Assembly: GCF_001570365.1 (NCBI RefSeq)
Contig: NZ_BBYK01000039.1
Span: forward strand, 62,001-126,000
DNA: 64,000 bases
Direction of reading: 5' to 3'
Source: Microtetraspora fusca
GTDB taxonomy: Bacteria > Actinomycetota > Actinomycetes > Streptosporangiales > Streptosporangiaceae
In this document: positions 5,434 to 37,456 of the stretch, piece after piece
Position numbering within the stretch: the first letter of the stretch is position 1
How the letters are laid out: each line of letters begins with the position of its first letter
Position numbers and translations under genes: made by a program
Notes under the pieces: model-generated
The model's database searches: none
The model's input: only the letters and a program-made list of their open reading frames with translations
Told to the model about the DNA's origin: nothing

Positions 5434-6399
5434 TCACAGGCTGCGCAGCGTGGCCAGCAGCTCCCGCTCCGCCCACTCGAAGAACTCCTTCTGGTGCTCG
5501 TGCCCGATCTGGACCAGGGCGACGTGGGTGAACCCGGCGTCCGTGTACTTGCGCACCGCCTCCACCACGGCGTCCACGTCCGCGCCGCAGGGCACCTTCT
5601 CCGCGACGTCCTCGGGCCGTACGGTCCCGGCGTACGCGTCGAAGTTCACCGGGGCGGGCAGCTCGGCCATCACCTTCCAGCCCGCGGCCGACCAGCGCCA
5701 CAGCCGGTGGGCCCGCTCGACGGCGGCCTCCCGGTCGGTGTCGTAGGAGATCGGGAGCTGGCCGTAGACCGGCTTGTCCCGGCCGCCCTCGGCGAAGAAC
5801 TTCGCGACCAGCTCGGCGTCCGGATCCACGGTGACCAGGCCGTCCCCGTACTCGGCGGCGATCTCGCCGGACTGCTCGCCCGAGGCGGCGATCGCGATCG
5901 GCACCGGCTGGTCCGGCAGGTCGTACAGGCGGGCCGAGTCGACGTCGAAGTGCGCCCCGCGATAGCTGGTGTAGCCGCCCTCGAACAGCTCCTGGATGAT
6001 CTCGATGGCCTCCCGGAACATGTCGTGCCTGGTGTTGACCGGCGGCCAGCCGTGGCCGATCACGTGCTCGTTGAGGTTCTCGCCCGCCCCCAGGCCGAGC
6101 GTGAACCGCCCTTCGGACAGGACGCCCACCGTGGCGGCCTTCTGCGCGACCACCGCCGGGTGGTAGCGCATGATCGGGCAGGTGACGTACGTCATGAGTG
6201 GCAGCCGCTGCGTCGAGACGGCCGCCGCGCCCAGCACCGACCACGCGTACGGCGCGTGCCCCATCTCCTCCAGCCAGGGGAAGTAGTGGTCGGAGATTAC
6301 GGCGTAATCGAACCCGACCCGCTCGGCCGTGACCACGTCGTCGACGAGCTGCCGGGCGGGCGTCTGCTCGGTCATCATCGTGTACCCGATTTGCACCAT
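5434..6399 (-). CDS. F420-dependent LLM-class oxidoreductase
   Basis: The protein is 321 residues from the ATG at 6399 (MVQIGYTMMTEQ). It has the luciferase-like monooxygenase TIM barrel seen in F420-dependent dehydrogenases of the glucose-6-phosphate dehydrogenase subgroup: FDYAVISDHYFPWLEEMGHAP early, TLGLGAGENLNEHV in the middle and an IAASGEQSGEIAAEYGDG segment. It would use coenzyme F420 as hydride carrier in the cytosol, which is common in actinobacteria. The substrate is not predictable. The open frame extends further upstream, but those residues show no family similarity. It diverges from the exporter operon at 6538. Confidence 0.9.
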   Translation of the reverse strand: MVQIGYTMMTEQTPARQLVDDVVTAERVGFDYAVISDHYFPWLEEMGHAPYAWSVLGAAAVSTQRLPLMTYVTCPIMRYHPAVVAQKAATVGVLSEGRFTLGLGAGENLNEHVIGHGWPPVNTRHDMFREAIEIIQELFEGGYTSYRGAHFDVDSARLYDLPDQPVPIAIAASGEQSGEIAAEYGDGLVTVDPDAELVAKFFAEGGRDKPVYGQLPISYDTDREAAVERAHRLWRWSAAGWKVMAELPAPVNFDAYAGTVRPEDVAEKVPCGADVDAVVEAVRKYTDAGFTHVALVQIGHEHQKEFFEWAERELLATLRSL

Positions 6400-6537
6400 G
6401 GGGCACGAATACCCATCTCGCGCCCGCCCTCGCCGGGGCGGACGGTCTCTTTGCCGGAACCGGTTCCTGGGCAGTTCCGGGGCAAGTCGTGAATTTTTCA
6501 CTGCCGCCGTGCGGCGCGGCTCCGAAGAATCGGAGCC

Positions 6538-7431
6538 ATGGAAGCAATCCAGGTGGACGGGCTCAGGAAGAGCTACGGCGACTTCGAGGCGGTCCGGGAG
6601 ATCTCCTTCTCCGTCGCCCGGGGCGAGATATTCGCCCTGCTCGGCAGGAACGGCGCGGGCAAGAGCACGACGATGGAGGTCCTCGCCGGGTTCCAGCGCC
6701 CCGACGGCGGCACCGTACGGGTGCTCGGCCTCGACCCGGTGAAGGACCGGGCCAAGGTGCGCAAGAGCACGGGGATCATGCTCCAGGAGGCGGGCTTCTT
6801 CCCCGACCTGACCGTGGCGCAGACGGTGGACTCCTGGCGGCAGCTCGTCCCGGCCGCCCGGCCGCGCGCCGAGGCCCTGGAGTTGACCGGGCTGACCGGC
6901 AAGGCGGGCACCAAGGTGCGCCAGCTCTCCGGCGGCGAGAAGCGGCGGCTCGACCTCGCGCTGGCCACGCTGGGCCGTCCCGACCTGCTCTTCCTGGACG
7001 AGCCGACGACGGGCATGGACCCGGAGGCGCGCAAGGCCACCTGGGACGTCGTCACTGACCTGGCGGCGCACGGCACCACCGTCCTGCTCACGACGCACTA
7101 CCTGGAGGAGGCCCAGCGCCTCGCCTCCAGGATGGCGATCATGGACAGGGGCGCGATCGTGGCCGCCGGAGGCATGGCCGAGACGCTCGCCGCGCAGACC
7201 GGGCGGGTGGCGTTCGAGCTGCCCGACGGCGTGGAGATCCACGACCTGCCCGTGGAGGCCACGGCCGTGGAGGGCGGCACCGTGATCTGCCGGGTGCCCG
7301 ACCCCGACGTGGCCGCGCAGACGCTCCTCGGCTGGGCCGGCGAGCGCGGACTGCGGCTGCGCGGCCTGGAGGTCCGTACGGCGACCCTCGAAGACCTGTT
7401 CCTCGATCTGGCGAGCAAGGAGAACGCGTGA
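6538..7431 (+). CDS. DrrA-like ABC exporter ATPase
   Basis: The 297-residue nucleotide-binding protein has Walker A GRNGAGKST, Q-loop region GIMLQEAGFFPDLT, signature LSGGEKRRLDLA, Walker B LLFLDEPTTGMDP and H-loop TTHYLEEA. A C-terminal extension of about 80 residues is typical of the daunorubicin-resistance (DrrA) group. It overlaps the permease by 4 bases and leads a co-directional set with a two-component system. Such ATPase-permease pairs export drugs, lipids or antibiotics, and association with a NarL-type sensor pair fits a stress-inducible pump. The substrate is unknown. Confidence 0.94.
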   Translation: MEAIQVDGLRKSYGDFEAVREISFSVARGEIFALLGRNGAGKSTTMEVLAGFQRPDGGTVRVLGLDPVKDRAKVRKSTGIMLQEAGFFPDLTVAQTVDSWRQLVPAARPRAEALELTGLTGKAGTKVRQLSGGEKRRLDLALATLGRPDLLFLDEPTTGMDPEARKATWDVVTDLAAHGTTVLLTTHYLEEAQRLASRMAIMDRGAIVAAGGMAETLAAQTGRVAFELPDGVEIHDLPVEATAVEGGTVICRVPDPDVAAQTLLGWAGERGLRLRGLEVRTATLEDLFLDLASKENA

Positions 7432-8198
7432 TGACGGCTCGTGAGACCCTGGCGGTCGCCCGCCTCGGCGGCCGGATCTACTGGCGGGACAAGCAGGCGC
7501 TGACCGCGACCGTGCTGACCTCCCTGGGACTCGGCATCGGCCTGCCGGTGCTGATGGACCGGGTACGTGCGGGCGACCCCTCGGTGGTGGCCGCCCAGTT
7601 GCTCGGCATGCTGGCGGTGGTTCTCACGCTCAGCGGGTTCAACCAGAGCGCCGTCTCGCTGACCGCCCGGCGCGACCAGCTCGTCCTCAAGCGGCTGCGC
7701 GCCACCGGGCTGAGCGACGGCGCGGTGCTCGGCGGCGAGCTGCTCAACATCATGGTCCAGGGCGTGCTGATCGCGCTGGTCACGACGGTGGCGGTGGTGA
7801 ACCTCACCTCGGCTCCCGCGCCGCGCGACCCGATCCTGTTCGCCGTCTTCGTGGTGCTCGGCGCGGCCGTGATCACGCTGCTCGGCGCCGCCTGGACCGT
7901 GGTCATCCCCCGGGCCGAGGTGGCTGCCCCGATGAGCATCCCGTTCTTCATGATCGCCGGGCTGGGCGCCGGGGCCTTCGGGCCGATGGGCCAGCTCCTC
8001 CCCGGCTGGCTGACGACCGCGCTCGACCTGCTGCCCACCGCGGCGGTGGTCAAGGTGGGCAGGGCGACCTTCGCCGACGGCACCTTCGCCGACGATCTGC
8101 AGGCGGCGGCGGTGCCCCTGCTGATCCTGACCGTCTGGGCGGCCATCGCGCTCCTGGTGATCAGTCGCTGGTTCCGCTGGGAAGCGCGCCGGTCATAA
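7428..8198 (+). CDS. ABC-2 type exporter permease
   Basis: This 256-residue protein has six hydrophobic segments after a short cytoplasmic N-terminus, the ABC-2 membrane fold. The start overlaps the ATPase stop (ATGA), giving translational coupling. It should dimerise and assemble with the preceding ATPase as a DrrAB-like efflux pump in the cytoplasmic membrane. Downstream, a 110-base spacer of short repeats separates it from the sensor kinase, which probably shares the transcript. Confidence 0.92.
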   Translation: MMTARETLAVARLGGRIYWRDKQALTATVLTSLGLGIGLPVLMDRVRAGDPSVVAAQLLGMLAVVLTLSGFNQSAVSLTARRDQLVLKRLRATGLSDGAVLGGELLNIMVQGVLIALVTTVAVVNLTSAPAPRDPILFAVFVVLGAAVITLLGAAWTVVIPRAEVAAPMSIPFFMIAGLGAGAFGPMGQLLPGWLTTALDLLPTAAVVKVGRATFADGTFADDLQAAAVPLLILTVWAAIALLVISRWFRWEARRS

Positions 8199-8247
8199 TC
8201 GAGCCGGTCGTCATCAAGTCCGGTCGCAATCAAGCCGGCCCGATCAC

Positions 8248-8297
8248 GTCTGATCACGCCTGACCAAGCCTGATCGAGCCTGATCGAGCCGGTCATA
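8248..8297 (+). repeat. Ten-base tandem repeat between permease and sensor kinase
   Basis: Four to five successive decamers of the form gcctgatcga (gtctgatcac, gcctgaccaa, gcctgatcga, gcctgatcga, gccggtcata) fill the spacer before the kinase start at 8309. The motif ccggtcataatcg also occurs at both ends of the spacer (about 8192 and 8289). The ten-base period matches one helical turn, which would place any binding sites on one DNA face. A function is not established. Confidence 0.7.
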
Positions 8298-8308
8298 ATC
8301 GGGACGTC

Positions 8309-9511
8309 ATGCGTATACGCTCGCAAACCTTGGCCATCGCCGTGGTCGGCACGATCTCGGTGGGGTTCACGATCAACCTGATCGCCTCAGTCCTGATGTT
8401 CGGCTCCCTGCCGCACGACGGAATCATGGTCGTCGCGATGGTCGCGTTCTTCGTCCCCCACTACCTCCATATTCGTGCGGCCCTGCGCGGACAGGCCTTC
8501 CGGGGGTTCCCGGTGGCTCTCCTCGTTCAGGCGGTGGCCACCTACGCGCCGTCCTTGGCCTTCGGCGGCATGTGGTACTTCTGGATCGCCCCGATGGTTC
8601 CGATCCTCATGGGCTCGGTGCTGCTCCGCCTGCGGTTCGCCGTGGCCCTGCCGATCGTGGCCTGCGCGATGGCCGTACACGCCTGGGTGTTCACGACCGT
8701 GCCGCCGGGCGGAAGCCTGTCGAGCGGGTTCTACTTCGCCATCACCGTTTTCGTCACCGGATTCGTGATCTACGCGGTGACCCGGCTCGTGGTCGTGACC
8801 AGAGAGCTGGAGCGGGCCCGCGCCGACCTGGCCGAGGCGGCGGTGCTGAAAGAGCGGCTGCGCATCTCCCGCGACCTCCATGACGGCCTCGGGCACAGCC
8901 TGTCTGCCATCGCGCTGAAGGGCGATCTCGCGCGGAGGCTGGTCGAGCGCGACCCCGCCGTGGCCGCCGGCGAGCTGGAGGAGCTCGTCCGGGTCGCCAG
9001 GGACGCCGCCCAGGACGTACGGCAGGTGGCCCGGGGGTTCCGGGAGATGTCGCTGTCGCAGGAGGTCGATCGCGGCGTGGCGCTGCTCGCGGCCTCGGGC
9101 GTCCGGTGCCACGTCAACCTCGCGGACGTCGAGGTGCCGAAGGTCGTGGGCGAGACCCTCGCCTGGGGCGTGCGCGAGGGGATCACCAACGTCGTACGGC
9201 ACAGCCGCGCGACGACCTGTTCGATCACCACCTCCCTGCGCGGCCGGGCCGTACGCCTTGAGGTCGTGAACGACGGCCGCATCGAGGGGGACGGCGGCCC
9301 CGCCCCCGTCTCCGGCCGGAGCGGCGGCGGCGGCGGGCTGGCGGGCCTGCGGGAACGCGCGGAGCAGGTCGGCGGCTCGGTGGTCGCGGAGCGGGTCGGT
9401 GACAGCGGGTTCCGGCTCGTCATGGAGATCCCCGTGCCCGACGCGTCCTCCCTGGGGACGGCGGCCGGTCCCGGGACATCGGAGCTTTCCCAGCCGGAGG
9501 TGACCGGATGA
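8309..9511 (+). CDS. Sensor histidine kinase, NarL/DesK group
   Basis: This 400-residue membrane kinase has an N-terminal half of five or six hydrophobic helices (to about residue 155) that acts as an integral-membrane sensor without a large extracellular loop. A HisKA_3 domain follows with phosphoacceptor His191 in RDLHDGLGHSL. The C-terminal HATPase domain carries the N-box region WGVREGITNVVRHS and a glycine-rich lid (GGGGGLAGLRERAEQVGG). Its stop overlaps the response regulator start by 4 bases. It probably controls the exporter encoded upstream, a common arrangement in actinobacteria. The signal is unknown. Confidence 0.93.
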   Translation: MRIRSQTLAIAVVGTISVGFTINLIASVLMFGSLPHDGIMVVAMVAFFVPHYLHIRAALRGQAFRGFPVALLVQAVATYAPSLAFGGMWYFWIAPMVPILMGSVLLRLRFAVALPIVACAMAVHAWVFTTVPPGGSLSSGFYFAITVFVTGFVIYAVTRLVVVTRELERARADLAEAAVLKERLRISRDLHDGLGHSLSAIALKGDLARRLVERDPAVAAGELEELVRVARDAAQDVRQVARGFREMSLSQEVDRGVALLAASGVRCHVNLADVEVPKVVGETLAWGVREGITNVVRHSRATTCSITTSLRGRAVRLEVVNDGRIEGDGGPAPVSGRSGGGGGLAGLRERAEQVGGSVVAERVGDSGFRLVMEIPVPDASSLGTAAGPGTSELSQPEVTG

Positions 9512-10113
9512 TCAAGGTGCTGCTCGCCGAGGACATGCATATGATCAGAGCGGCCCTGACGGCGTTGCTGCGCCTCGAATCGGACATCGAGGTGGTCGCC
9601 GAGGTGACCAAGGGTGACGAGATCGTCCCCGAGGCGCTCCGCACCCGTCCGGACGTGGCGGTCGTCGACATCGACCTCCCCGTCGTGGACGGCATCACCG
9701 CCGCGGCCGAGTTGCTCGGCCGCCTGCCCTCCTGCCGCGTCCTGGTGCTCACCGCGATGGGCCAGCCCGGGCAGGTACGGCGTGCCCTGCAGGCCGGCAT
9801 CGAGGCGTTCCTGGTCAAGGACGCCCCCGGTGACCGGCTGGCGGACGCGATCCGCCGCACGGCCCAGGGACTGCGCGTCCTGGATCCGGAGCTCGTCGCG
9901 TCCGCGATGGAGTACGGCGCGAGCCCGCTGACTCCCCGGGAGGCGACCGTGCTCAAGGAGGCCGCCCACGGGGCGGCGGCGGAGGAGATCGCGGCACGGC
10001 TGCACCTCTCCCCCGGCACCGTGCGCAACTACCTGACCAGCGCGATCACCAAGATCGGCGCACGTAACAAGATCGACGCCATCCGGGTGGCCCAGGACGC
10101 CGGCTGGCTGTGA
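9508..10113 (+). CDS. LuxR/NarL-type response regulator
   Basis: The 201-residue protein has an N-terminal receiver with acidic residues at the start (LLAEDMHMI), phosphoacceptor Asp54 in VVDIDLPVVDG and the conserved lysine in FLVKDAPG. The C-terminal LuxR-type helix-turn-helix reads LTPREATVLKEAAHGAAAEEIAARLHLSPGTVRNY. It is translationally coupled to the upstream kinase (4-base overlap) and to a downstream P-loop gene. The likely regulon includes the DrrAB-like pump ahead of it. Confidence 0.94.
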   Translation: MIKVLLAEDMHMIRAALTALLRLESDIEVVAEVTKGDEIVPEALRTRPDVAVVDIDLPVVDGITAAAELLGRLPSCRVLVLTAMGQPGQVRRALQAGIEAFLVKDAPGDRLADAIRRTAQGLRVLDPELVASAMEYGASPLTPREATVLKEAAHGAAAEEIAARLHLSPGTVRNYLTSAITKIGARNKIDAIRVAQDAGWL

Positions 10114-10160
10114 CGAGGCGGCCCCGGGGCCGCACCGCGCGAGGACGAGGAGGCGGCCGG

Positions 10161-10715
10161 ATGCCGGTCCGGGCAGGAGACCCAGCAGAGTTCGTCGTCA
10201 TCACCGGAGGTCCCGGTTCCGGGAAGAGCACGCTGATCGACCGTCTTGAGGGCGCCGGGTTCGCGCGGTCGCAGGAGGCGGGACGCGCGATCATCCAGGA
10301 CCAGACCGCGATCGGCGGGCGCGCCCTGCCCTGGCTCGACCCGGAGCTGTTCGCCGAGCTGATGCTCTGCTGGGAGCTGCGCTCGTACCAGATCGCGCGC
10401 GGCCACCAGGGGCCGGTCTTCTTCGACCGGGGAGTGCCGGACATCGTGGGATATCTACGTCTCGAAGGGCGCGCGGTGCCCGATCACGTGGACGCCGCCG
10501 CGCGGACCTTCCGGTACCACCCTCGCGTCTTCATCGCCCCGCCCTGGCCGGAGATCTACCGCCAGGACGTCGAGCGCAGGCAGTCGCTCGACGAGGCCGA
10601 GCGGACATACGCCTCCATGGTCGCCGCGTACACGGACTACGGGTACGAGCTGGTCACGCTGCCGCGCGGCTCGGTGGAGGAGCGGGTGCGCTTCGTCAGG
10701 TCGGAGATCGGCTGA
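10161..10715 (+). CDS. P-loop ATPase/kinase of the AAA_28 type
   Basis: The protein is 184 residues from the ATG at 10161, which has a strong AGGAGG site 7 bases upstream. An in-frame GTG at 10110 overlaps the regulator stop and is the alternative start. Walker A is GGPGSGKST; a DRGVPD motif and a later arginine-rich helix resemble small nucleotide or metabolite kinases grouped as AAA_28. It is the last gene of the exporter/two-component unit. The substrate cannot be deduced and a role in the signalling system is only suggested by position. Confidence 0.8.
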   Translation: MPVRAGDPAEFVVITGGPGSGKSTLIDRLEGAGFARSQEAGRAIIQDQTAIGGRALPWLDPELFAELMLCWELRSYQIARGHQGPVFFDRGVPDIVGYLRLEGRAVPDHVDAAARTFRYHPRVFIAPPWPEIYRQDVERRQSLDEAERTYASMVAAYTDYGYELVTLPRGSVEERVRFVRSEIG

Positions 10716-27558: not shown

Positions 27559-27587
27559 CATGCCACGGAACGTGACAGACTGGCATG
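27559..27587. promoter_or_regulatory. Inverted repeat in the phosphatase/kinase divergent region
   Basis: Arms CATGCCA (27559-27565) and TGGCATG (27581-27587) with a 15-base spacer lie between the two divergent stress genes, about 55 bases from the phosphatase start and 75 from the kinase start. It could be an operator shared by both. Confidence 0.35.
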
Positions 27588-27659
27588 AGGTTCGTGCCAG
27601 ACACGGCGTTGTTTCGCCGTGCCCGCCGGCCGGGAAATCCCGCAGGGGAAGGAGTCTCG

Positions 27660-31835
<4,176 letters not shown>

Positions 31836-34298: not shown

Positions 34299-36800
34299 CT
34301 ATGGAATGGTCGGCACGCTGATCGCGGCCACCCCGAAGAGCAGCGCGTCCTTTCTGGTCAGGACGTTGAGCGCGGGGCTCTGACCACGCAGCGTCACCGC
34401 GTCGCGCCGCGGCCCGGCCTTCCCCGGCCAGCTCAGGACCTCCAGCCGGGCCTCCCGACCCCCGGCCCCCAGCCCGCCGAGCGTGACGTTGAGCGGACGC
34501 CCGCCCCGCAGCAGCGACGCGGTCTCCAGCACCGCCGCCTGCCCGTACGGCTGCCGCGGATCGGAGGCGACCACGACCAGCGTCCATCCGGCCCGGCCCG
34601 CGGAACCGGCGGCACGGGCCGGGCCCGGGGCTGCGGTTCCGCTCCGGCTCGGTGCGGGAGTGGCGGAGGAACCAGCGCCGGTCCCGGAAGCGGCCATGGA
34701 AGGAACGGCCGGGGTGGGCGAGGCGGCGGCCGTGGAAGGAACGGTCGCCTTGCGAGAGGGAGATCCGGAGGGCCGGAGCACCTTCCCGGAGGCCGGTGCG
34801 ACGGTCGCGATGGACGGGTCCGCAACCCACCACACGCCGTTCGGGCCGGCGGCGCGCACGAGGCGCGTCACGTCGGCGAACGCGAGATAGCCGGTCCCGG
34901 AGGAAAGCGACCGTCGGGTCAGCTCGGTGGCGCGCACCGTCACATAGCTCGCCGATCGCGGCGCCCGGACCCGGACGACCCCGGCCGGGGAGCTCCCCTC
35001 CCTGCCCGCCGACCAGTACAGCCCGGCCCAGAGCACCCGGGCGCGGCTCGGCAGCGAGAGGCGGGCCGAGCTGGAGCTCCGCGTCGAGGGGTCGCGGTCG
35101 CGGTCGACGAGGACCTTCGCCGCGCAGCCGGACGTCTTCGATGGGCAGGCCAGCAGGTCGCCGCCGACCGCCTGGCCGGTCAGGTGCCCGTCGGCGGCGA
35201 AGCGCGCGGTGGCCCCCGACGCGCTGACCCCCTTGGCCGACGTCGCCGCCGCCCGCAGCGTCCCGGCCCGCACGCGTACGGCGGGGCCGCGGTCGCGTGG
35301 CGCGTTCCCGGCCACGGTCACCGGCAGGAAGAGCGAGGTGGCCTGGCCCGGCGCGAGCCCGTCGTGCGCGCACCGCACCCCCGTCCCGCTCGTATGGCAC
35401 GCCCACCCGCCGGGCGCCGCCGAAGCGGCGGTCGAGCGCCCCTTGCCCGCCGAGGCCGCCGCCGGGGCGACCCCGCGGGGCAGGTCCACGGCCGCCTCGA
35501 CCTCGGCGGAGGCGGCGTTCCCGGTGTTGCGCAGCCGTATCGCGACGACGCCGCGCCGGTCCCGTACGAGCGCGCCGACCGGCTCGACGGTCGCGGCGAG
35601 CCGGGCCGTCCGAGGGACCGGCGCCTGTGCCTGCTTCCTGGTCATGACCGGCCGCTCGGCCGCCGGGGCGGGGGTCGTCGCTCCCGAGGACGACCCGCCG
35701 CCGGCCGTCCGGGGACGCGCGGAGCCGGTGGCCGACGGAGAGGGCGACCGCCCAGGCGAGAACGGCACGAGAGAGGAGGGCGCCGACGGGACGGACACGG
35801 GTGAGCGCGCGGGCGGCGAGGGCACCGGCTGCGGCCCCGATCGACCCTCGACATCGCTCTCCATGGCGCCGGTGCCATCCCGCTGGTCGTGGACGCCCTG
35901 GGCGGCGGGGTGCCGTCCGCTGACAACCGTGGTGGAGAGGAGCAGGCCGCCGGCGGCGGCCGTGGCCGCACCCGCGGCGGCCCAGTACGCCAGCGGCACC
36001 CCCCGCAGCCGCCCCCACACGCCGCCGGCCCGCGTCCCGCTTCCCTCCTCCGCCACCCCGTTCAGCGCGGCGAGATACCCGGTGAGGAAGGGCCCGGCGA
36101 TGAGCGGGCCGACGACGACCCGCAGCCCCTGGACGAGGTCGGACAGTTCGAGGAAGACCGTGCGGCAGTCGACGCAGTCGGCGACGTGGCCGTCCACCAT
36201 GCGGGTCTCCCGCCGGCTCAGACCGCTCCGGACGTAGGCCCCCATCTTCTCCAGCATGGTGCGGCAGCCGGGAAGCGGCCCGGCGTCGAGGTGGATCTGC
36301 AGGAACGCCTGGCGCAGCCCCTCCCGCGCGCGGAACGCGAGCGCCGCGACCCCCTTCGCCGACAGGCCGAGCATCGGGGCGATCTCCATCGCCGCGCAGG
36401 TCTCCACCTCGGTGTGCCACAACACCATGCGCCACCGCTCCGGCAGCGAGAAGTACGCCGCGGCGACCGGCGAGCGCTCCAGCCCCGCGTACGCCGGGTC
36501 CACGTACGGGGCGCCGAGCTCGTCCTCGTCGCGCTGCCCGGCGGCGGTACGGCGCAGCGCGGTCAGGAGGTAGGGGCGGAAGGCCGTCTCGGGACCGCTC
36601 CCGCTCCTGATCGCGTTGAGCACGGCCGCGAACGTCTCGGAGAGGATCTCGTCGGCCTCGGCGTCGCCCTCGACCATCTGCCCGGCCAGGGAGCGGGCCG
36701 CGGTGACGTGGCGGTCGAAGAGGGCGGCGTAGGCCGACACGTCGCCGCCCCGCACCGCGTCCAGCAGTTCTGCATCGGTTTGCCGCATTCCCGCACCCAT
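34299..36800 (-). CDS. Membrane-spanning ECF sigma factor fused to zinc anti-sigma domain and surface region
   Basis: The protein is 833 residues from the ATG at 36800, with GTGAGG upstream. Order: sigma region 2 (about 10-80; LFDRHVTAARSLA, FRPYLLTALRR), sigma region 4 (about 115-170; LPERWRMVLWHTEVE, MLGLSAKGVAALAFRARE), a zinc anti-sigma motif HVADCVDC near residue 215, one membrane helix (YWAAAGAATAAAGGLLL, ~275-300), a Ser/Pro/Thr-rich stalk and a secreted domain (VLWAGLYWSAG, YLAFADVTRLV, GWTLVVVASD). ECF sigmas with membrane-spanning extensions are known in actinobacteria. Release probably needs proteolysis. The C-terminus looks short compared with related surface domains. Confidence 0.85.
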   Translation of the reverse strand: MGAGMRQTDAELLDAVRGGDVSAYAALFDRHVTAARSLAGQMVEGDAEADEILSETFAAVLNAIRSGSGPETAFRPYLLTALRRTAAGQRDEDELGAPYVDPAYAGLERSPVAAAYFSLPERWRMVLWHTEVETCAAMEIAPMLGLSAKGVAALAFRAREGLRQAFLQIHLDAGPLPGCRTMLEKMGAYVRSGLSRRETRMVDGHVADCVDCRTVFLELSDLVQGLRVVVGPLIAGPFLTGYLAALNGVAEEGSGTRAGGVWGRLRGVPLAYWAAAGAATAAAGGLLLSTTVVSGRHPAAQGVHDQRDGTGAMESDVEGRSGPQPVPSPPARSPVSVPSAPSSLVPFSPGRSPSPSATGSARPRTAGGGSSSGATTPAPAAERPVMTRKQAQAPVPRTARLAATVEPVGALVRDRRGVVAIRLRNTGNAASAEVEAAVDLPRGVAPAAASAGKGRSTAASAAPGGWACHTSGTGVRCAHDGLAPGQATSLFLPVTVAGNAPRDRGPAVRVRAGTLRAAATSAKGVSASGATARFAADGHLTGQAVGGDLLACPSKTSGCAAKVLVDRDRDPSTRSSSSARLSLPSRARVLWAGLYWSAGREGSSPAGVVRVRAPRSASYVTVRATELTRRSLSSGTGYLAFADVTRLVRAAGPNGVWWVADPSIATVAPASGKVLRPSGSPSRKATVPSTAAASPTPAVPSMAASGTGAGSSATPAPSRSGTAAPGPARAAGSAGRAGWTLVVVASDPRQPYGQAAVLETASLLRGGRPLNVTLGGLGAGGREARLEVLSWPGKAGPRRDAVTLRGQSPALNVLTRKDALLFGVAAISVPTIP

Positions 36801-36919
36801 TGTTACCTCACGATTACGCTCCGTCGTCCCGCACATGATTCCGCCGACCATGTACCGGCTAAACCGATGACGGGCCCTTACCTCCGGAGCGGTGCTCGTG
36901 ACCTCGTAGGCTGGGCGCC

Positions 36920-37456
36920 ATGAACGACCGCGAGAAGCTGCTTGACGAGATCAAAAAGAAGGGGGTCGTGCACGGCAGGGTCGTGCTCTCCTCGGGCAAG
37001 GAGGCCGACTGGTACGTCGATCTCCGCCGCATCACGCTGGACGGCGTGGCGGCACCGCTCGTGGGTCGGGTGATGCTCGACCTGACGGAGGACCTCGGCT
37101 ACGACGCGGTCGGCGGCCTGACGCTCGGCGCGGACCCCGTCGCGACCGCGATGCTGCACGCCGCCCACGCCCGCGGCCGGGTGCTCGACGCCTTCGTCGT
37201 ACGGAAGGCGGGCAAGGCGCACGGCCTGCAGCGCCGCATCGAGGGGCCGGACGTGAAGGGGCGCCGCGTGCTCGCGGTGGAGGACACGACCACCACGGGC
37301 GGCTCCGTGCTGACGGCCGTGGAGGCGCTGCGCGAGGCGGGCGCCGAGGTGGTGGGCATCGCGACGATCGTCCACCGGGGCGGCGACGAGAACCTGGCCG
37401 CCACCGGCCTGCCGTACCGGTCGGCCTACGGCCTCACCGACCTGGGTCTCGCGTGA
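36920..37456 (+). CDS. pyrE: Orotate phosphoribosyltransferase
   Basis: A 178-residue enzyme of pyrimidine synthesis that joins orotate and PRPP to give OMP. The PRPP-binding loop VEDTTTTGGS is intact, with SGKEADWYVDLRR at the N-terminus and VVRKAGKAHG, the flexible catalytic loop. Length is typical. The neighbours DedA, fba, DUF3151 and purA follow, a conserved actinobacterial order. The end overlaps the convergent small membrane protein by 23 bases. Confidence 0.96.
   Translation: MNDREKLLDEIKKKGVVHGRVVLSSGKEADWYVDLRRITLDGVAAPLVGRVMLDLTEDLGYDAVGGLTLGADPVATAMLHAAHARGRVLDAFVVRKAGKAHGLQRRIEGPDVKGRRVLAVEDTTTTGGSVLTAVEALREAGAEVVGIATIVHRGGDENLAATGLPYRSAYGLTDLGLA

What the first reader, a model, noticed from the sequence alone, without database searches (positions are those of the whole stretch)
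34299..36800. One-chain sigma factor, anti-sigma zinc domain, membrane helix and surface domain
Regions 2 and 4 of an ECF sigma factor are followed on the same chain by an HxxxCxxC anti-sigma motif, a membrane helix and an extracellular domain. A sigma factor tethered to the membrane with its inhibitor in cis should need proteolytic release, making the protein a complete envelope-stress circuit in one gene. The surface part is related to adhesin-like domains and could sense the outside directly. Groups of ECF sigmas with membrane extensions are known, but the adhesin-like sensor and cis anti-sigma deserve study.
Basis: partly seen in the sequence, partly recalled or inferred. Interest (0 to 1): 0.75.

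Follow-up and report, generated by a model that had tools for sequence, protein, structure and literature searches.

The report
Membrane-tethered sigma factor with surface sensor
One gene of a soil actinomycete (genus Microtetraspora) encodes a gene-switching sigma factor fused to its own zinc inhibitor, a membrane anchor and an outside domain related to surface proteins; the one-chain design is already known from Streptomyces, but this outside domain marks a separate, unstudied version found in much of a bacterial family.

Summary
Window 36800-34299 (-) is one 833-aa frame: ECF sigma regions 2 and 4, a CHCC zinc anti-sigma domain, a weak membrane helix, a Pro-rich linker, a DUF11-like domain and a C-terminal domain homologous to the N-terminal head of DUF11/SdrD_B proteins of Thermus (hhalign probability 99.9). 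The arrangement recurs across the class: a sigma-plus-zinc profile matches 58 of 158 genomes at E<=1e-35 (in one, the sigma part only). The outside part is exchanged between clades: NPCBM (SCO4117-type, ECF52), ricin, Ig+ricin, LamG, bacterial Ig, or this one. The version here occurs in 16 of 25 genomes searched in its family, mostly in one gene neighbourhood, under purifying selection. Most likely mechanism: the zinc domain holds the sigma factor at the membrane, and proteolysis frees it when the outside domain senses something. This is published as expected for ECF48/52/53, with partial support for SCO4117. Cis inhibition, cleavage, signal and regulon are untested here; the AlphaFold models were too poor to use. 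So 'complete circuit in one gene' is not new. New here are the surface-protein-type sensor, its family-level conservation and a conserved upstream element. Verdict: new variant of a known kind, moderate interest.

The parts
34299..36800 (-). whole gene from the likely start codon (833 aa); the open frame runs on to 36851
   Evidence: conserved in M. malaysiensis, M. glauca, Nonomuraea
36543..36722 (-). ECF sigma region 2
   Evidence: Pfam Sigma70_r2 E 2.1e-6 above cut-off; profile match to solved ECF sigma factors
36321..36449 (-). ECF sigma region 4
   Evidence: Pfam Sigma70_r4_2 E 0.018, below cut-off; family profile matches sigma4 of 3hug_A; relatives L059, L006, L007 pass the Pfam cut-off
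36162..36266 (-). CHCC zinc anti-sigma domain (zf-HC2)
   Evidence: Pfam E 2.8e-6 above cut-off; CHCC pattern in 83 of 85 frames collected with a profile that includes this domain; profile matches 3hug_B
36063..36119 (-). hydrophobic segment H1 after the zinc domain (VVVGPLIAGPFLTGYLAAL); helix of the anti-sigma domain or a second membrane segment
   Evidence: hydropathy >=1.5 in 57 of 81 frames
35922..35978 (-). membrane helix, weak in this copy
   Evidence: hydropathy 1.49; 21 of 23 members of this ectodomain class have more Lys+Arg in the 20 residues before it than after it, 1 tie, 1 fewer
35622..35921 (-). Pro/Ser-rich linker
35217..35612 (-). DUF11-like domain with a near-invariant Cys pair
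   Evidence: DUF11 E 0.2 in this protein (below cut-off); 4 of 25 orthologous ectodomains at E<=1, best 0.021; Cys columns
34302..35216 (-). C-terminal domain homologous to the N-terminal head of Thermus DUF11/SdrD_B proteins; distant to DUF3344
   Evidence: hhalign probability 99.9, 273 columns; BLASTP 38% over 155 aa; DUF3344 E 1.2e-7 in family member L095
34602..34796 (-). fast-evolving Ala/Ser/Pro insert inside the C-terminal domain
   Evidence: absent from Thermus; length varies within the genus; dN/dS 1.28 over 39 codons against M. glauca
36838..36866 (-). conserved upstream element CGGTTTAG...GCGGAAT
   Evidence: the only match in the window's genome at <=3 mismatches, against 1 for the reversed control pattern

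Best explanation
It is a membrane-tethered one-component ECF sigma factor. The N-terminal sigma regions 2 and 4 are followed directly by a zinc anti-sigma domain that, most likely, folds back on them (in the same chain or on a neighbour) and blocks binding to RNA polymerase. A membrane helix and a Pro-rich stalk present a two-domain surface-protein-like ectodomain outside. A signal at the cell surface (a ligand, cell-wall change or mechanical change) would allow an outer cut, then a cut in the membrane by a site-2 protease, then clearance of the zinc domain, releasing the sigma part to transcribe its own gene and a regulon not yet known. Shown here: the domain order, zinc ligands, conservation, different ectodomains on a common cytoplasmic core, purifying selection, a site-2 protease gene in the genome. 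Inferred: cis inhibition, outside location, proteolysis, signal, autoregulation.
For: Sigma and zinc domains by Pfam and by profile against solved structures, including both chains of one complex. CHCC pattern in 83 of 85 collected frames and in all 23 of this ectodomain class (frames were picked with a profile that includes the zinc part). A common sigma+zinc core with at least six kinds of ectodomain, most of them binding or Ig-like modules, is what a sensor module would look like. More positive charge before the helix than after it in 21 of 23 of this class, and a near-invariant Cys pair in the ectodomain, fit an exported C-terminus. Purifying selection on sigma and ectodomain. A Peptidase_M50 site-2 protease gene (E 6.9e-46). 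Published precedent: the sigma domain of SCO4117 alone can modulate development and its own gene is then activated (PMC5826349, passages); IutY, a fused sigma/anti-sigma, is released by Prc and RseP (PMC8999054, passages).
Against: No experiment on this protein or its clade. The AlphaFold model of the cytoplasmic half has mean pLDDT 45, so the cis contact is not modelled. H1 could be a second membrane helix, which would put the C-terminus inside. Over all 81 frames the charge rule holds in 52, ties in 10 and fails in 19; in the NPCBM class it holds in 0 of 11. Region 4 scores below the Pfam cut-off here. M50 proteases occur in all 14 control genomes, so presence is weak evidence. No target gene other than perhaps its own was found.
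Confidence: 0.62

Rival explanations
1. Release without proteolysis: the zinc domain is a redox or metal switch (as in zinc anti-sigma factors such as RslA or RsrA, recalled) and the chain stays at the membrane while the sigma regions open; the ectodomain only localises the protein.
For: CHCC motif and match to the partner chain of 3hug.
Against: Does not explain why the ectodomain is under purifying selection (0.19-0.37 outside the insert) and replaced by other binding modules in relatives. A tethered holoenzyme is hard to picture.
Confidence: 0.13
2. Two membrane segments (H1 and the helix): the C-terminus is cytoplasmic and the protein is not a surface sensor.
For: H1 is uncharged with hydropathy 1.79; 57 of 81 frames have H1 at or above 1.5; in the NPCBM class the charge rule does not favour a single outward helix, 0 of 11.
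Against: Charge rule in 21 of 23 of this class; H1 below 1.0 in 11 of 81 frames, 4 of them in this class; Cys pair; homology to Thermus proteins that look secreted.
Confidence: 0.08
3. The sigma part is degenerate in this lineage and the protein is now mainly a membrane-anchored surface protein.
For: Region 4 below Pfam cut-off; the sigma2-sigma4 linker in Microtetraspora is about 12 residues shorter than in most relatives aligned.
Against: Lowest dN/dS of the protein is in sigma2 and sigma4 (0.16, 0.14); region 2 above cut-off; zinc ligands intact.
Confidence: 0.07
4. Inhibition acts mainly in trans: the zinc domain of one chain, or another anti-sigma protein, controls the sigma part of another, so that it works as a classical pair that happens to be fused.
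For: Zinc anti-sigma domains normally act between two proteins (established knowledge); nothing here tests cis against trans.
Against: The junction between sigma4 and the first zinc Cys is short (about 13-19 residues), which makes cis contact natural; the adjacent genes seen are an NYN protein and pyrE, not an anti-sigma gene.
Confidence: 0.1

Closest known systems
ECF52 sigma factors (SCO4117 of Streptomyces coelicolor)
   Same: ECF sigma + zf-HC2 zinc finger + membrane region + Pro-rich stretch + extracellular module on one chain (PMC5826349, passages)
   Different: SCO4117 carries a carbohydrate-binding module (smart00776; that this is NPCBM is recalled); here DUF11-like plus a surface-protein head domain. 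In the tree the 11 NPCBM rows lie in a 13-row group of their own (100/99) apart from this one
ECF53 and ECF48 groups
   Same: described as C-terminal fusions with zinc domain and one to two membrane helices, expected to be activated by proteolysis (PMC8999054, passages)
   Different: no reference sequence of either group was at hand, so the relation could not be measured; some ECF52 and ECF53 proteins are said to have glycosyl hydrolase and carbohydrate-binding domains (PMC10766802, passage)
IutY (ECF243) of Pseudomonas putida
   Same: sigma and membrane anti-sigma on one chain, freed by Prc and RseP (PMC8999054, passage)
SigL/RslA of Mycobacterium tuberculosis (PDB 3hug; names recalled)
   Same: sigma region 4 and the partner chain both match the profile
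   Different: two separate proteins
DUF11/SdrD_B proteins of Thermus (L210, L211)
   Same: head domain homologous to the C-terminal domain
   Different: no sigma factor; signal peptide read by eye only

Membership tests
ECF sigma factor | regions 2 and 4 of sigma70 without the others | tested here: met
   Sigma70_r2 above cut-off, r4_2 E 0.018 below cut-off; family profile aligned across SigE, SigL, SigH structures
Zinc anti-sigma (ZAS) domain | zf-HC2 with C-H-C-C ligands | tested here: met
   E 2.8e-6 above cut-off; C-x25-H-x3-C-x2-C; zinc binding itself not testable
Sigma with fused membrane anti-sigma (ECF48/52/53 kind) | sigma, zinc domain and membrane helix in one frame | tested here: met
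   helix weak in this copy
ECF52 | Pro-rich extension after the membrane region | tested here: met
   residues ~311-410 of the 850-codon frame
ECF52 | carbohydrate-binding module at the C-terminus | tested here: not met
   no Pfam carbohydrate-binding match in the window ectodomain; only weak DUF11 and Big_2
ECF52 | groups with NPCBM (SCO4117-type) proteins by sigma+zinc sequence | tested here: not met
   NPCBM rows in a separate group 100/99; window in a 25-row group 88/89. SCO4117 itself was not identified among the rows
ECF52/53/48 | score above the published group HMM | not testable with these tools
   classification papers not held, no group models at hand
Sigma released by regulated proteolysis | cleavage in vivo | not testable with these tools
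   only a site-2 protease gene found
DUF3344 / DUF11 surface domains | Pfam model above cut-off | tested here: not met
   window protein below cut-off; relative L095 above for DUF3344; no DUF3344 match in 26 genomes at E<=0.001; homology to Thermus heads by profile

The most novel reading that the evidence does not exclude
Streptosporangiaceae use the head domain of a surface or adhesin-type protein as the sensor of a one-chain sigma factor, so that the cell reads its own surface layer or contact with a partner directly (for example by the head binding the same ligand or assembly as the true surface proteins), and cutting the chain both frees the sigma factor and sheds the head. Across actinomycetes the same sigma+zinc core would be a plug-in receptor platform whose outside module is exchanged for lectins, Ig arrays or surface heads.
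Probability: 0.15. Interest if true: 0.62.

Novelty: new variant of a known kind. Interest (0 to 1): 0.36.

Why it matters
One-chain sigma factors are about the simplest way to turn an outside signal into transcription. SCO4117 was reported in 2018 as the first ECF52 member characterised (PMC5826349), and neither its signal nor its protease is given in the passages I read. A conserved sister group with a different, recognisable ectodomain, plus at least four further ectodomain types on the same core, makes domain-swap tests direct: exchange the outside part, keep the sigma part, and see whether the signal changes while the regulon does not.

Tried and rejected
AlphaFold2 of the cytoplasmic half (3 sequences, pLDDT 45) and of the ectodomain (4 sequences, pLDDT 40): too poor, so no fold search was run. 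Viral-contig scans with A1 and A2: no relatives confirmed. Phage collection with the last 367 residues: no match. Profile of the ectodomain against solved structures: weak hits (best E 0.0033) at profile positions 41-139, which I take to be the Pro-rich start of the profile; not used. DUF3344 in 26 genomes: none. Other weak Pfam matches among the 25 orthologous ectodomains, not followed: NPCBM_assoc in 2 (best 7.8e-4), Collagen in 1 (3.5e-4), Glyco_hydro_79C in 1 (5.8e-3).

Idea that these sigma genes generally sit beside sortase-anchored surface proteins: sorting signals in 2 of 20 loci from other families against 1 of 20 control stretches, so not supported as a rule. Annotated pilin or sortase-dependent genes do lie beside or near 3 of 7 plasmid relatives looked at; in L006 one gene lies between, and two of the seven have no annotation.

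Idea that the upstream element marks a regulon: the pattern (built from these same upstream regions, so its matches there are by construction) has 12 matches in 10 of 21 genomes at <=3 mismatches, the reversed control 6; the own genome has one, the sigma gene, and one control match. Eight have 0-1 mismatches: seven lie before sigma genes and one before a sigma+zinc frame that ends in the linker in G008. The G012 match (3 mismatches) is also the sigma gene. The other three (3 mismatches) were not examined.

Slips: alignment A6 held a stray 4-base row and was not used. In A8 row 1 (the window) was in the wrong frame, so the counts rest on 75 of 76 rows; the window ectodomain was scanned.
Full report
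Observation. The minus-strand frame 36851-34299 has 850 codons. The likely start is codon 18 (36800): GAGG precedes it, the start context is conserved in four aligned species, and the Nonomuraea gerenzanensis frame has no ATG further upstream. Pfam finds sigma region 2 (E 2.1e-6) and zf-HC2 (E 2.8e-6) above cut-off, and region 4 (E 0.018) below. A profile of 21 relatives over the sigma and zinc part (A7) matches ECF sigma factors in solved structures (best E 4.1e-16). In one entry, 3hug, it matches both the sigma region 4 chain and the partner membrane protein (that these are SigL and RslA is recalled). So the two halves of a solved complex lie on one chain here. The zinc motif is a full C-x25-H-x3-C-x2-C.

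Conservation. The gene has the same order of parts in M. malaysiensis (87% identity) and M. glauca, and in N. gerenzanensis (49%); in M. niveoalba the ectodomain lies at a contig start. A profile of the ectodomain (A2) matches 17 of 41 genomes: 16 of 25 of the same family (own genome and 3 of the genus included), 1 of 4 others of the order, 0 of 12 others of the class. An NYN gene lies close downstream on the same strand in 22 of the 23 family loci listed (the 23rd, L054, ends before it). pyrE and fba lie nearby on the opposite strand in most; in L050 they lie downstream on the same strand, and in several the distance is larger. I read this as vertical inheritance. dN/dS against M. glauca is 0.16 and 0.14 in the sigma regions, 0.40 in the zinc domain, 0.33, 0.37 and 0.19 in the ectodomain pieces, 1.28 in the low-complexity insert (39 codons), 0.37 over all. 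Against M. malaysiensis (0.65 overall) there are too few changes to read.

A family of one-chain sigma factors. The A7 profile matches 58 of 158 genomes of the class at E <= 1e-35; in one of them (G092) the only match covers the sigma part alone, and several further single rows elsewhere do too. From the loci held I collected 85 open frames with this profile; 83 carry the CHCC pattern (the profile includes the zinc part and I fetched mostly long frames, so this is not a random sample). Ectodomains cluster into 23 like the window's, then groups of 11, 9 and 9, then smaller ones. Pfam gives NPCBM in 11, Ig in 9, a ricin family in 20 of 75 usable rows. The groups were named by these counts and by one scanned member each for NPCBM (L107) and Ig+ricin (L122); the second group of 9 is called ricin by counts alone. 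LamG (L010), ricin (L007, L008) and bacterial Ig (L105) were scanned singly. In a maximum-likelihood tree of the sigma+zinc part (midpoint root, bootstrap not fully settled) the window's ectodomain class falls in one group of 25 rows (88/89, not starred); the two extra rows, L050 and L062, are damaged orthologs. The NPCBM rows lie in a 13-row group (100/99), the ricin cluster in another (100/97). Thus different ectodomains sit on a common core, and this group is not the SCO4117-like one.

The ectodomain. In the window protein Pfam gives only sub-threshold DUF11 (E 0.2). Of 25 orthologous ectodomains, 4 match DUF11 at E <= 1 (best 0.021) and 3 DUF3344 (best 1.2e-7, L095, from another family of the class); scattered other matches are listed under rejected ideas. 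tblastn over plasmids found Thermus frames at E 1e-3 to 3e-3. These open frames are about 1000 aa with DUF11 and SdrD_B above Pfam cut-off. Their N-terminus looks like a signal peptide (my reading, not tested), and the annotated genes start further in, so that the head lies in the open frame before or across the annotated start. The head aligns with the C-terminal domain here: 38% over 155 aa by BLASTP and probability 99.9 over 273 columns profile against profile (the Thermus side has only two sequences). [quoted passage not shown] its one mention of DUF3344 was not shown to me. PMC9674854 (passage) calls DUF3344 proteins likely cell-surface proteins. So 'adhesin-like' is fair as 'surface-protein-like'; binding is not shown. 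A low-complexity insert (about 34602-34796) inside this domain is absent from Thermus and varies within the genus.

Topology. In the window's ectodomain class 21 of 23 frames have more Lys+Arg in the 20 residues before the membrane helix than after it (1 tie, 1 fewer), which fits a C-terminus outside, as does a near-invariant Cys pair. But over all 81 frames the rule holds in 52, ties in 10 and fails in 19, and in the NPCBM class it holds in 0 of 11. The uncharged segment H1 could be a second membrane segment (57 of 81 frames at hydropathy 1.5 or more). This stays open.

Mechanism. I think the most likely reading is the one published for ECF48/52/53: zinc-domain inhibition and proteolytic release. 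PMC8999054 (passages) states it as expected for these groups and cites SCO4117. PMC5826349 (abstract and passages) reports that the sigma domain of SCO4117 alone can modulate development and that expression of SCO4117 is then activated, and speaks of an uncharacterised protease. Here I add a site-2 protease gene in the genome, which all 14 control genomes have too. The cytoplasmic AlphaFold model was too poor to judge the contact.

Upstream element. Orthologs share CGGTTTAG ... GCGGAAT upstream of the start. As a pattern built from these regions it has 12 matches in 10 of 21 genomes at <=3 mismatches (6 for the reversed control). The own genome has one match, the sigma gene (36838-36866 in the window), and one control match. 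Eight of the 12 have 0-1 mismatches and lie before sigma genes or, in G008, a sigma+zinc frame that ends in the linker. The core ATGACGCG, picked out by eye in these regions first, lies within 320 bases upstream, on either strand, of 19 of 85 sigma frames, against 1.7 expected from resampled sequence. The 19 fall in four family codes (f1 9 of 22, f24 5 of 13, f33 4 of 7, f25 1 of 1), with none in 42 others, the window and M. malaysiensis among them; kinship is not corrected for. This suggests a conserved promoter or operator of the sigma gene and possible self-activation; it is not proof.

What is known. The one-chain design is known. In the rows listed by my paper searches (DUF3344, 2 of 2; 2 of 2; 15 of 81; 3 of 3; 10 of 72; 9 of 9; 6 of 6; 20 of 33) I saw no mention of this ectodomain on a sigma factor. 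The classification papers (Huang 2015, Casas-Pastor 2021) are not held, so they may contain it. I file this as a new variant of a known kind.

Verdict. Interest 0.36.

Noticed in passing
window 36801-36920 and upstream regions of L048-L062, L094-L153: A conserved upstream element: composite CGGTTTAG...GCGGAAT in Streptosporangiaceae, and a core ATGACGCG (19 of 85 upstream regions, 1.7 expected, kinship not corrected) shared by sigma genes with different ectodomains in several families; its reverse complement reads to me like an ECF promoter pointing away from the gene.
   Followed up: partly
L062 (G024) 6283-10319, L050 (G004) 6296-7563, L163 (G008): Three orthologs are damaged or shortened: in L062 and L050 sigma part and ectodomain are in different frames, and L163 ends in the linker. 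A Streptomyces clavuligerus ortholog of SCO4117 is reported split between the carbohydrate module and the rest, perhaps by a sequence error (PMC5826349). Error, decay or a real split product cannot be told apart.
   Followed up: partly
window 36450-36542; A7 alignment: In Microtetraspora the linker between sigma regions 2 and 4 is about 12 residues shorter than in most relatives aligned, while L058 (G015) has an insert of well over 100 residues there.
   Followed up: no
L006, L009, L008: Plasmid-borne relatives in Paenarthrobacter, Arthrobacter and Streptomyces sp. NBC_00334 lie beside or near annotated SpaA/LPXTG pilin or LAETG sortase-dependent surface protein genes; L006 also holds a second copy that ends soon after the zinc domain. 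Not a general rule.
   Followed up: partly
window 27585-31835 (+): A 1416-aa frame that reads like a histidine kinase with a long array of near-identical HAMP-like repeats, a GAF-like part, kinase and receiver, followed by a second receiver-like gene (read from the translation, not scanned).
   Followed up: no
PLSDB record NZ_LT559118.1 (L004): The 11.85-Mb Nonomuraea gerenzanensis record is filed as a plasmid but by size and by carrying fba and pyrE is evidently a chromosome; plasmid counts that include it mislead.
   Followed up: no
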